Assembly: GCA_017443345.1 (NCBI GenBank)
Contig: JAFSNR010000020.1
Span: 1 to 64,000, forward strand
Direction: 5' to 3'
Origin: Prevotella sp.
Lineage (GTDB): Bacteria; Bacteroidota; Bacteroidia; Bacteroidales; Bacteroidaceae
Length of the DNA: 64,000 bases
The position numbers and the translations under genes are program-made. Positions 42,198 through 55,910 of the stretch are shown here, in pieces. Position 1 is the stretch's first letter, and the number at the start of each line of letters is the position of its first letter. The notes beneath the pieces are model-generated. The model did no database searches. It was not told the DNA's origin and was given only the letters and a program-made list of their open reading frames with translations.

Positions 42198-42225
42198 TGA
42201 CACAAATTTGAAAACATATGAAACA
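42198..42225 (+). promoter_or_regulatory. Putative HTCS operator of the GH115 gene
   Basis: Direct repeat TGACACA (42198-42204) and TGAAACA (42219-42225), period 21 bp. The second half-site starts 37 bp before the -7 box TAACTTTG at 42256-42263. Confidence 0.75.
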
Positions 42226-42255
42226 TCTGTAGAAGAGCTTTTATGGAAGAATAGC

Positions 42256-42263
42256 TAACTTTG
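42256..42263 (+). promoter_or_regulatory. -7 promoter element of the GH115 gene
   Basis: TAACTTTG followed by CACC, 24 bp before the start at 42287. Confidence 0.75.
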
Positions 42264-42286
42264 CACCATAATCAATAACACAAAAA

Positions 42287-44770
42287 ATGGCAAAGCTAAC
42301 ATTATCAACTAGAAGATGGCTGCTCACTCTGATCGGAGCAGTGATGACCTGCGCTGCGATGGCAGCAGAACCCTTCGTGACATTTGAACAGACAGCCGGC
42401 AGTTGGCTGCTGAAAGACGTGACCATCGGCTACGCAGCCAAGGAGCACTCGTGCGTGCAGCTGGCAGCAGCCAACCTGCAGAAGGACTTTGAGATGGTGA
42501 CGGGCAACAAGCCTGCCATCAGTGAGGCGAGACCTCGGATCCTCATCGGCACCGCGGGCGTGAACCCGCAAATCGACCAGTGGGTGAAGCAGGGTGTGCT
42601 CAGCAACCTGAAGGGTAAGACGGAGAAATATCTCATCAAGACCATCGACGGACAGCTCGTGATTGCGGGCAGCGACAAGCGTGGAACGGTCTACGGCATC
42701 TATGAGCTGTCGAGACAGATCGGCGTGTCGCCCTGGTACTTCTGGGCTGATGTGCCTACAGAGCATCACACCTTATTATATATTAAGGAAGGCGAGTTCA
42801 CGGACGGTGAGCCTGCCGTGAGATATCGCGGATTGTTCCTCAACGACGAGGCGCCCTGTCTGACATCGTGGGTGAAGAACACCTTCGGCACGGACTTCGG
42901 CGACCACCGCTTCTACGAGAAGGTGTTCGAGCTCATCCTGCGACTGAAGGGTAACTACCTGTGGCCTGCCATGTGGGGATGGGCCTTCTACGCCGACGAC
43001 CCTGAGAACCTGAAGACGGCCGACGCGATGGGTGTGATGATGGGAACCTCGCACCACGAGCCGATGGCGCGCAACCATCAGGAGTATGCCCGCAACCGCG
43101 AGGGATGGGGCGCCTGGAACTACAAGACGAACAAGGAGAACCTCGACCGCTTCTTCCGTGAAGGTATCGAGCGCGCGAAGGGCACTGACGACATCATCAC
43201 CATCGGCATGCGTGGTGACGGCGACGAGGCCATGGGCAACACGACGGACACGAAGCTGCTGGAGAGCATCATCGACAACCAGCGCCGCATCATCAAGGAG
43301 GTGACCAAGCGACCCGCCAAGGAGACGACTCAGATATGGGCGCTCTATAAGGAGGTGCAGGACTACTACGACGCAGGACTGAGAGTGCCCGACGACGTCA
43401 CCATCCTGCTCTGCGACGACAACTGGGGCAACGTCAGACGACTGCCCACGGCCGAGGAGCAGAAGCGCAAGGGTGGCTGGGGACTCTACTACCACGTGGA
43501 CTACGTGGGAGCGCCCCGTAATACAAAGTGGATCAACGTGACGCCCATCCAGAATATGTGGGAACAGCTGCAGCTGGCCTACAACGGCGGCATCCAGAAG
43601 CTGTGGATCCTGAACGTGGGCGACCTGAAGCCCATGGAATATCCCATCCAACTGTTTATGGACATGGCCTGGAATCCCAGCCAATACAACGTGGACAATC
43701 TGCTCGACCATACACGCGACTTCTGTAAGGAGAGCTTTGGAGAGGAGCAGGCCTGCGAGGCTGCCTCGATCCTGAACCTCGTCAGCAAGTATAACGGCCG
43801 CATCACCTCGGAGATGCTTGATGCCACCACCTACACGACGGACGAGTTCGCACAGGTCGTAGCCGAGTATCAGGCTCTCGAGACGCGCGCCCTGCGCCAA
43901 TTTATCACTCTGAAGCCCGAATACAGGGATGCCTACCGTCAGGTAATCCTCTTCCCCGTACAGGCGATGGGCAATATCTACGAGATGTACTATGCCCAGG
44001 CGATGAACCTGAAGCTGGCTGCATTGGGCGATCCAGAGGCCAACTGCTGGGCAGAGCGCTGTCGCCAGGCCTTCAAGCGCGACTCGCTGCTGAATCTGCA
44101 GTACAACAAGGAGATCGCTGGTGGCAAGTGGGATGGTATGATGACGCAGAAACACATCAGCTATAAGGACTGGAATGACTGGTTCAAGGCCGATGTCTGC
44201 CCTGAGCTGAAGACGGTGGAAGCCCCTGCACAAGGGCCCGTGTTCACAGAGAGCAACGGCTACATCAGCATCGAGGCTGAGCACAGTTACAGCCGCACGG
44301 ACGCCCAGAACGCGAAATGGACAGTGATCCCCTACATGGGTCGCACCCTGAGTGGCATCGCCCTGATGCCCTATACCACAGGGACTGACAACGCCCAGCT
44401 GGAGTACCGTTGGAAGGGCAAGGCTGACAAGGTGAAGGTACACGTGGTGACGAAGTCGACCCTCGATTTCCTCGACAAGGGTGGCCTCATCTTCGACGTA
44501 GCCATCGATGGCGGACAGCCCGTGAGCGTGAACTTCAACAGCAACCTGAACGAGAAACCTGAGAACATCTATAGCATCTACTATCCCACCATCGCCCGTC
44601 GCATCGTGGAACAGATTGTGGAACTGCCTATCGACGCCTCAAAGGACATCCATACGCTGACCCTGCATCCACAGGACCCTGGCATCGTGTTCGAGAAAAT
44701 TGTCATCGATCTGGGAGGGTATCAGCAGCAATACCTCTTCGGAAAGGAATCGCCGAAGAGCTTTCATTAA
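42287..44770 (+). CDS. GH115 xylan alpha-1,2-glucuronidase
   Basis: 827 residues, the usual length. A signal peptide of about 26 residues is followed by the family-typical segments: PRILIGTAG near 84, WYFWADVPTEH near 155, YRGLFLNDEAPC near 182, LRLKGNYLWPAMWGW near 215, GTSHHEPM near 251 and TIGMRGDGDEAM near 304. A C-terminal beta-sandwich starts near 650. GH115 enzymes remove (4-O-methyl-)glucuronic acid from internal and terminal xylose residues, which opens decorated xylan to the GH10 enzyme encoded downstream. Monocistronic, with its own operator-bearing promoter. Confidence 0.94.
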   Translation: MAKLTLSTRRWLLTLIGAVMTCAAMAAEPFVTFEQTAGSWLLKDVTIGYAAKEHSCVQLAAANLQKDFEMVTGNKPAISEARPRILIGTAGVNPQIDQWVKQGVLSNLKGKTEKYLIKTIDGQLVIAGSDKRGTVYGIYELSRQIGVSPWYFWADVPTEHHTLLYIKEGEFTDGEPAVRYRGLFLNDEAPCLTSWVKNTFGTDFGDHRFYEKVFELILRLKGNYLWPAMWGWAFYADDPENLKTADAMGVMMGTSHHEPMARNHQEYARNREGWGAWNYKTNKENLDRFFREGIERAKGTDDIITIGMRGDGDEAMGNTTDTKLLESIIDNQRRIIKEVTKRPAKETTQIWALYKEVQDYYDAGLRVPDDVTILLCDDNWGNVRRLPTAEEQKRKGGWGLYYHVDYVGAPRNTKWINVTPIQNMWEQLQLAYNGGIQKLWILNVGDLKPMEYPIQLFMDMAWNPSQYNVDNLLDHTRDFCKESFGEEQACEAASILNLVSKYNGRITSEMLDATTYTTDEFAQVVAEYQALETRALRQFITLKPEYRDAYRQVILFPVQAMGNIYEMYYAQAMNLKLAALGDPEANCWAERCRQAFKRDSLLNLQYNKEIAGGKWDGMMTQKHISYKDWNDWFKADVCPELKTVEAPAQGPVFTESNGYISIEAEHSYSRTDAQNAKWTVIPYMGRTLSGIALMPYTTGTDNAQLEYRWKGKADKVKVHVVTKSTLDFLDKGGLIFDVAIDGGQPVSVNFNSNLNEKPENIYSIYYPTIARRIVEQIVELPIDASKDIHTLTLHPQDPGIVFEKIVIDLGGYQQQYLFGKESPKSFH

Positions 44771-44793
44771 TTGAGTTAGTATAATATTGAAGG

Positions 44794-55838: not shown

Positions 55839-55844
55839 ACCCCG

Positions 55845-55872
55845 TGTTACACCAGACAAAATTTATGAGACA
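55845..55872 (+). promoter_or_regulatory. Putative HTCS operator of the GH3 gene
   Basis: TGTTACA (55845-55851) and TGAGACA (55866-55872), period 21 bp. The second half-site starts 37 bp before the -7 box at 55903 and overlaps the stem of the GH95 terminator. Confidence 0.65.
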
Positions 55873-55900
55873 TGAGAGAAATCCCATGTCTCATTTTTTT
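55865..55900 (+). terminator. Terminator of GH95, overlapping the GH3 promoter region
   Basis: A 10-bp stem ATGAGACATG/CATGTCTCAT (55865-55874, 55885-55894), then Ts to 55900. Confidence 0.8.
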
Positions 55901-55902
55901 CC

Positions 55903-55910
55903 TACCTTTG
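55903..55910 (+). promoter_or_regulatory. -7 promoter element of the GH3 gene
   Basis: TACCTTTG followed by CACCC, 34 bp before the start at 55944. Confidence 0.7.

What the first reader, a model, noticed from the sequence alone, without database searches (positions are those of the whole stretch)
42198..55910. Shared direct-repeat operator TGnnACA-N14-TGnnACA at fixed distance in four xylan-locus promoters
Seen directly: pairs at 42198/42219, 48808/48829, 53121/53142 and 55845/55866. Each pair has a period of exactly 21 bp, and in each the second half-site starts exactly 37 bp before the TAnnTTTG box (42256, 48866, 53179, 55903). Two helical turns between half-sites suits a dimer of AraC-type DNA-binding domains. 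The only such regulator here is the HTCS encoded at 44809-48744, between the target genes. The alpha-glucan promoter (33613), the HTCS promoter and the second GH95 promoter (53310) lack it, which argues against a general promoter feature. The site defines a four-promoter regulon covering GH115, CE6-CE1 with GH10-CE1, a short RNA, and GH3.
Basis: partly seen in the sequence, partly recalled or inferred. Interest (0 to 1): 0.85.

Follow-up and report, generated by a model that had tools for sequence, protein, structure and literature searches.

The report
Xylan switch sites and hidden RNA
In a Prevotella-like bacterium the xylan-digestion genes share one precisely placed DNA site, probably the landing site of a sugar-sensing regulator as in known relatives, and one such site drives a small, strongly conserved RNA for which no description was found.

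Summary
In detail: all four TGnnACA-N14-TGnnACA sites lie where stated, each 30 bp before TAnnTTTG. The genome has five perfect composites: these four plus one before a GPH symporter and GH43 gene. With both spacings left free, 5 of 7 matches fall on 14/30.

Comparison links the site to the HTCS: 26 of 33 orthologue loci carry it at exact geometry, against 12 matches summed over 12 shifted geometries. Direct repeats of about 21 bp are the published form of HTCS operators (PMC3878776), so the operator is a new member of a known kind. "Four-promoter regulon" is too narrow and too regulator-specific: 183 of 299 genus genomes hold the composite, some beside other HTCSs.

The unexpected part is the "short RNA": a near-invariant ~38-nt core plus covarying terminator hairpin. 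All 30 accepted homologues have the operator at exact geometry. One of them, and two further genes, carry it as the signal-peptide start of a GH43 gene beside the HTCS; elsewhere it stands alone, even far from xylan genes. Rfam has no match. Targets are unknown; a partial target scan was negative.

The parts
42198..42235 (+). Operator 1: two 17-bp units (TGnnACA-N6-AAAG type), period 21, before GH115; half-sites 42198-42204 and 42219-42225
   Evidence: read; conserved 9/10 in L094
42256..42263 (+). -7 box TAACTTTG of the GH115 promoter
42287..44770 (+). GH115 gene (alpha-glucuronidase family)
   Evidence: Pfam PF15979
44809..48744 (-). HTCS gene (HTCS1): Reg_prop sensor, Y_Y_Y, HisKA, HATPase_c, receiver, AraC-type HTH; presumed regulator
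   Evidence: ATG at 48744
48772..48779 (-). -7 box TACCTTTG of the HTCS promoter, divergent from operator 2
48808..48845 (+). Operator 2 before CE6-CE1 and GH10-CE1; half-sites 48808-48814 and 48829-48835
   Evidence: 10/10 in L094
48866..48873 (+). -7 box TAATTTTG of the CE6-CE1 promoter
48906..50855 (+). CE6-CE1 type esterase gene (SASA plus Esterase domains)
   Evidence: start
50801..53083 (+). GH10-CE1 gene (xylanase plus esterase); mechanical ORF start, true start may lie later
53121..53158 (+). Operator 3 before the short RNA; half-sites 53121-53127 and 53142-53148
   Evidence: present in all 24 strong RNA homologues
53179..53186 (+). -7 box TATCTTTG of the short-RNA promoter
53193..53292 (+). 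Short RNA, about 100 nt (start inferred from box position): near-invariant core about 53204-53243, terminator hairpin 53250-53285, T-run 53286-53292
53310..53317 (+). Second -7 box TACCTTTG before GH95, after the terminator; no operator
53343..55838 (+). GH95 gene downstream of the short RNA
   Evidence: Pfam PF22124; ATG position
55845..55882 (+). Operator 4 before GH3; half-sites 55845-55851 and 55866-55872
   Evidence: 10/10 in L094
55903..55910 (+). -7 box TACCTTTG of the GH3 promoter
55944..58553 (+). GH3 gene, above the curated cut-off of xylan 1,4-beta-xylosidase Xyl3A (NF041776)

Best explanation
The four sites are operators of the HTCS encoded at 44809-48744. Each is a 38-bp direct repeat of a bipartite unit, TGnnACA-N6-AAAG, with a 21-bp period; by inference each AraC-type domain of a dimer uses its two helix-turn-helices on the two parts of one unit. 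The second AAAG ends about 20 bp before the -7 box, where a -33 element would lie, so the phosphorylated HTCS would stand in for that element and recruit RNA polymerase. Xylan fragments sensed in the periplasm would thus switch on GH115, CE6-CE1 with GH10-CE1, GH3, a distant GPH symporter-GH43 operon and a ~100-nt RNA. The RNA is a conserved noncoding element, an unstructured A/U-rich core followed by an intrinsic terminator, which most likely acts as an HTCS-induced trans-acting small RNA. Shown: sequence, geometry, conservation, co-occurrence, hairpin covariation. Inferred: binding, activation, inducer, start site, and the action of the RNA.
For: Five perfect composites genome-wide, all before glycan genes, reversed control 0 (row G000). 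5 of 7 free-spacing matches at 14/30. HTCS has all expected domains. Site within 1.5 kb of 26 of 33 orthologues at exact geometry, 12 matches over 12 shifted geometries. L094 keeps all four sites. General 21-bp period at this offset in HTCS-region promoters. RNA: 24 of 24 strong homologues and 6 of 6 covariance-model additions have the operator at N14/N30; core invariant; 7 of 15 hairpin pairs change on both sides. For independence of the RNA: in L336 and L338 no same-strand gene follows within the ~1.5 kb held, and L334, L336 and L338 lie beside RNase HII, efflux-protein and LpxB genes.
Against: No binding or expression data. The bare repeat is not enriched genome-wide. The composite is shared by other HTCS loci, so the assignment to this one HTCS rests on neighbourhood. 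7 of 33 orthologue loci lack a site of 9/10 or better within their flanks; of the named loci L097 and L151 showed none, and L118 only a differently spaced 9/10 site. Four genomes with the strong RNA, and G418 with a weaker one, showed no close HTCS1 orthologue, though they are incomplete. Target scan negative. Half of the RNA loci lack a second promoter before the next gene (12 of 24), which fits a leader as well.
Confidence: 0.8

Rival explanations
1. The operators are a shared recognition site for several HTCS paralogues (at least HTCS1 and the HTCS at C73:20755-24756), so the regulon is joint rather than owned by the HTCS in the window.
For: A one-mismatch site at the same geometry lies between the C73 HTCS (36% identical) and SusC/SusD; composites lie beside HTCSs of 29-33% identity in L105, L106 and L117; 4 RNA-bearing genomes have only a ~35% paralogue.
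Against: 26 of 33 HTCS1-orthologue loci have the site; all five perfect own-genome sites lie at xylan or arabinoxylan-type genes, four of them around HTCS1.
Confidence: 0.3
2. The short RNA is a cis-acting leader: a conserved terminator in front of the downstream glycosidase gene, read through under some condition (attenuation), with no trans role.
For: In 12 of 24 strong homologues no TAnnTTTG lies between terminator and next gene, with the gene 10-71 nt away; the element is the 5' coding end of GH43 in L095, L096 and L337.
Against: 11 of 24 have a second promoter after the terminator, 1 is undetermined; the downstream gene changes (GH95, GH3, GH31) while the core stays invariant; L336 and L338 have no same-strand gene behind the RNA in the stretch held; the core offers no alternative pairing with the terminator that I could see.
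Confidence: 0.22
3. The repeat pairs are a chance or general promoter feature unrelated to an HTCS.
For: The bare repeat equals its reversed control genome-wide; at up to 3 mismatches 40 against 23.
Against: Composite 5 against 0 in this genome; 183 of 299 genus genomes have one, the reversed control is 0 in every row of the table; exact geometry beside 26 of 33 orthologues.
Confidence: 0.02

Closest known systems
Predicted HTCS operators of Bacteroides thetaiotaomicron (Ravcheev et al. 2013, PMC3878776; passages and section 8 read)
   Same: Direct repeat of two sites, average distance 21 bp, read as a dimer on one face two turns apart; before PUL genes beside the HTCS; units of 12-16 bp with short gaps reported.
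   Different: None of the passages read describes a TGnnACA-N6-AAAG unit, a fixed 30-bp distance to the -7 box, a xylan HTCS or an RNA target; the motif logos and supplements were not seen.
XynR, HTCS activator of xylanase genes in Prevotella bryantii B14 (Miyazaki et al. 2003; seen only as a title in a reference list; paper not held)
   Same: By title and recall: a multidomain HTCS acting positively on xylanase genes in a rumen Prevotella.
   Different: Sequence, operator and orthology to HTCS1 could not be compared.
GibS and FopS small RNAs of B. thetaiotaomicron (PMC7366714, PMC11697453; passages read)
   Same: Short noncoding RNAs tied to PUL control; some intergenic or UTR-derived.
   Different: FopS are 14 paralogues per genome with canonical promoters, linked to bile-salt response; this RNA has one BLAST match in its genome and an HTCS-type operator. 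FopS sequences were not compared.
DonS-type PUL antisense RNAs (PMC7366714, passages)
   Same: PUL-associated RNAs of 78-128 nt.
   Different: DonS RNAs lie antisense to susC; here the RNA lies on the same strand as its neighbours in the window, with GH10-CE1 and GH95 beside it.

Membership tests
Hybrid two-component system (HTCS) | Sensor, histidine kinase, receiver and AraC-type HTH in one polypeptide | tested here: met
   Reg_prop, Y_Y_Y, HisKA, HATPase_c, Response_reg, HTH_18/HTH_AraC in one ORF
Hybrid two-component system (HTCS) | Phosphorylation-dependent DNA binding | not testable with these tools
   no experiment possible
HTCS direct-repeat operator | Direct repeat with about 21-bp period | tested here: met
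   exactly 21 in all four
HTCS direct-repeat operator | Conserved upstream of genes beside HTCS orthologues | tested here: met
   26 of 33 loci; 5 of 8 named loci at 9-10/10
HTCS direct-repeat operator | Bound by the HTCS DNA-binding domain | not testable with these tools
   needs gel shift or footprint
Xylan utilisation regulon | Target genes encode xylan-active enzymes | tested here: met
   GH115, SASA/Esterase, GH10, Xyl3A-type GH3, GPH symporter with GH43
Xylan utilisation regulon | Induction by xylan | not testable with these tools
   no expression data
Rfam RNA families | Match to a curated covariance model | tested here: not met
   0 matches at E up to 1 for window 41000-59000
Terminated noncoding RNA | Structure kept through compensatory changes | tested here: met
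   95.2% of cells paired, 7 of 15 pairs changed on both sides; 0 of 500 shuffles reach the paired percentage, but 27 of 500 reach the number of such pairs and 472 of 500 the number of pair types
Trans-acting small RNA | Base-pairs with target mRNAs | tested here: inconclusive
   best duplex -27.0 kcal/mol over 197 initiation regions, shuffled-core best mean -26.2, extreme -29.4; most genes not examined
FopS/GibS family | Shared R1 seed sequence | not tested
   seed sequences not seen in the passages read

The most novel reading that the evidence does not exclude
A genus-wide, HTCS-induced regulatory RNA family: one element (A/U-rich core plus a hairpin with an AAAGCGTT-type loop) that travels with its own operator, stands alone as a terminated RNA in most genomes that have it, sometimes far from xylan genes, and in others is used in frame as the signal-peptide start of a GH43 gene beside the HTCS. 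Because noncoding and coding versions share the sense strand, the RNA could act as a decoy for whatever binds the 5' end of such mRNAs, a feed-forward arm of the glycan switch.
Probability: 0.35. Interest if true: 0.8.

Novelty: new variant of a known kind. Interest (0 to 1): 0.6.

Why it matters
The operator gives a searchable signature (38-bp bipartite repeat, 14/30 spacing) with which HTCS regulons can be read from sequence in Prevotella-type genomes. The conserved RNA under the same operator suggests that a glycan-sensing HTCS switches on a regulatory RNA together with its enzymes, which would open a testable post-transcriptional layer of xylan use. An RNA element shared between a noncoding transcript and a signal-peptide coding region would be a clear case of an RNA and a gene exchanging sequence.

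Tried and rejected
Bare repeat as a genome-wide regulon marker: rejected, equal to its control. Sites at C77:109692 and 109816 (one of them palindromic): set aside, no box at the right distance. Small peptide encoded by the stand-alone RNA: rejected as the general explanation; of the 7 members translated one (L175) has an ATG opening that frame, others have stops or no start just before it, and hairpin indels shift the frame. Antisense targets: partial scan negative. Alternative: the window genome's own GH43 as the parent of the RNA: rejected, its start differs and it has no operator.

Rows dropped before counting: 12 weak partial BLAST hits to the RNA (L178-L180, L200-L208), none with the operator. 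The 30 accepted homologues are 24 strong ones (L094, L174-L177, L181-L199) and 6 from the covariance model (L334-L339), five of these six with weak E-values of 2e-4 to 5e-3; L337 is the GH43 coding form of G670. The alignment behind the model holds 21 of the 24 (L188, L190 and L191 left out as near-copies). The 33 orthologue loci are the 29 best-scoring loci other than the window's own (131 matches in 128 genomes) plus 4. One search stopped with an error after 16 loci; one search finished the other 8. One search parsed only 9 of 11 GH43 loci it was given and placed some starts badly; searches repeated it for all 12.

Corrected on the way: I took the gene behind the L114 site for a SusC (second notebook entry); it has no Pfam match and no SusC hit, so that is withdrawn. 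L111 has a TonB plug domain. Structure prediction and fold search were not used. Print: the listings of searches showed no paper that I recognised as describing this operator or RNA; most subscription papers are not held.
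Full report
CHECK OF THE OBSERVATION. The four repeat pairs and their boxes were read at the stated coordinates. In the window the bare pattern occurs 4 times against 0.19 expected; 0 of 100 shuffles reached 4. In the whole genome the bare pattern is not special: 20 matches, 20 for the reversed control. Adding N30-TAnnTTTG leaves five perfect matches, four in the window and one at C123:85065, and none for the reversed control (row G000). 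At up to 3 mismatches signal and control are 40 and 23, so only near-perfect sites are informative. Leaving both spacings free gave 7 matches, 5 at exactly 14/30, with 2 for the control.

WHAT THE SITES CONTROL. GH115 at 42287; CE6-CE1 and GH10-CE1 at 48906-53083; GH3 at 55944, the GH3 above the curated Xyl3A cut-off. The C123 site precedes a GPH symporter and a GH43 gene, opposite a SASA-type esterase, a second symporter and an arabinofuranosidase. A one-mismatch site at C73:24759 lies between another HTCS and a SusC/SusD pair. Of the 25 SusC genes over the family cut-off, this is the only one with a site of 9/10 in my scan; for 4 of the 25 no box lay in the stretch scanned.

LINK TO THE HTCS. 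The protein at 44809-48744 has all HTCS domains. I inspected the 8 best-matching named loci. L094, an uncultured Prevotella MAG (HTCS 85% identical), keeps all four sites (three 10/10, GH115 9/10). L095 and L096 (59 and 57%) have a 9/10 site before a GH43 gene; L114 (43%) a 10/10 site before an unidentified protein; L111 (44% over part of the protein) a 10/10 site with the box at 31 before a TonB-dependent receptor. L118 (39%) has only a 9/10 site with spacing 31, and L097 and L151 none convincing.

GENERAL GEOMETRY. Over 261 promoters in HTCS-bearing loci and own-genome stretches, self-similarity at period 21 starting at -58 from the box ranks first of all periods and offsets tried (z 4.6). 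Without this motif, the own genome and the close orthologues, 196 promoters still put period 21 first, at -51 (z 4.5). The placement is therefore a property of HTCS promoters in general. The composite is in 183 of 299 genomes of the genus, the reversed control in no row of the table; many of those sites use other middle bases, so TGnnACA is a family consensus and the two variable bases probably carry specificity (inference). Sites beside paralogues, such as TGAACGA-type repeats in this genome, share the geometry. The consensus of 64 sites chosen for TGnnACA shows a further, unselected AAAG, giving TGnnACA-N6-AAAG repeated after 21 bp. This fits one AraC-type domain with two helix-turn-helices per unit, and an activator lying where a -33 element would be (inference).

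RELATION TO PRINT. Ravcheev et al. 2013 (PMC3878776; passages and section 8) predicted operators for 16 of 36 HTCSs of B. thetaiotaomicron, all direct repeats with an average distance of 21 bp, read as dimers two turns apart. Gel shifts of HTCS fragments on such promoters exist (PMC11253607 and PMC5061871, passages). The operator is thus a new member of a known kind.

THE SHORT RNA. Between operator 3 and GH95 lies a ~100-nt unit ending in a strong hairpin and T-run (fold z -3.0; 3 of 200 shuffles fold as well). L094 matches 94 of its bases at 98.9%, while flanks differ more. BLAST found it in 7 of 399 family genomes and 28 of 299 genus genomes. After dropping 12 short partial hits and adding L094, 24 strong homologues remain. 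All 24 have the operator at exactly N14/N30 (21 at 10/10, 3 at 9/10) although other promoter positions vary. A covariance model gave 26 of 299 genomes, six of them new, all six with 9-10/10 operators at the same geometry. The core is invariant in 21 aligned sequences apart from a 6-nt insertion in three. In the hairpin 95.2% of cells pair and 7 of 15 pairs show changes on both sides; two of five shuffle measures are not exceptional (27 and 472 of 500 shuffles as high). Rfam has no match.

ITS NEIGHBOURS. Among the 24, GH10-CE1 (13) or CE6-CE1 (7) lies before it, GH95 before and GH3 after it in three, GH9 before and GH31 after it in one; GH95 follows directly in 18. Among the six model additions, three lie beside GH43 or HTCS genes (L335, L337, L339), while L334, L336 and L338 lie beside RNase HII, outer-membrane efflux and LpxB genes; in L336 and L338 no same-strand gene follows in the ~1.5 kb held. 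Operator and RNA thus belong together more firmly than either belongs to its neighbours.

CO-OCCURRENCE WITH THIS HTCS. In the 299 genomes 20 have the strong RNA, 128 an HTCS1 orthologue at E <= 1e-290, 15 both (hypergeometric p 0.0027; kinship and incompleteness ignored). With G414 (partial orthologue), G075, G281, G369 and L094, 20 of 24 strong homologues sit with HTCS1; G668, G521, G542 and G645 showed only a ~35% paralogue and are 79-94% complete.

AN UNEXPECTED RELATION. In L095, L096 and G670 (L337/L346) the same element, hairpin included, is the start of a GH43 gene beside the HTCS and encodes its signal peptide. L095 and L096 match the RNA model only weakly (E 0.011 and 0.028), but share the core words and hairpin. 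Of 12 GH43 matches in 11 of 12 queried genomes, only that of G670 has element and operator. In G594 and G604 the noncoding form lies about 170-210 bp upstream of the HTCS orthologue. Which form came first is open.

HOW IT MAY WORK. I favour an HTCS-induced trans-acting small RNA, since copies exist with no gene behind them. Attenuation is the main rival, because 12 of 24 strong loci have no further TAnnTTTG before the next gene (11 do, 1 undetermined). A decoy role follows from the shared sense sequence but is speculation. The target scan covered 197 initiation regions and was negative.

VERDICT. Observation confirmed; interpretation partly supported. The operator is ordinary in kind but well supported by comparison; the RNA is the part worth pursuing.

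Noticed in passing
window 44809-48744 (receiver domain): The receiver carries NFIP where the two other HTCSs aligned beside it, C73 and C185, carry SHIP; PMC11253607 (passages) ties an S/CHIP-DK motif to inhibitory receiver-DNA-binding-domain contact, so this HTCS may be held off differently.
   Followed up: no
G000 C73:86257, C73:101088, C73:104506, C185:137790: Repeats of TGAACGA/TGAAACA type at the same 14/30 geometry, some beside other HTCS genes or SusC genes, suggesting paralogue-specific operators.
   Followed up: partly
G000 C77:109692-109843: Two TGnnACA repeats, one palindromic, between a SusC gene and a divergent HTCS-like reading frame, without a box at N30.
   Followed up: no
L200, L205, L206: Coding starts of secreted proteins resemble part of the RNA core on the sense strand; in G448 and G637 an operator lies about 1.5 kb upstream on the same strand. 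Possibly only A/T-rich signal-peptide codons.
   Followed up: no
window 58584-60635, minus strand: A separate histidine kinase with a weak DUF6377 match, below its cut-off, lies directly after GH3.
   Followed up: no
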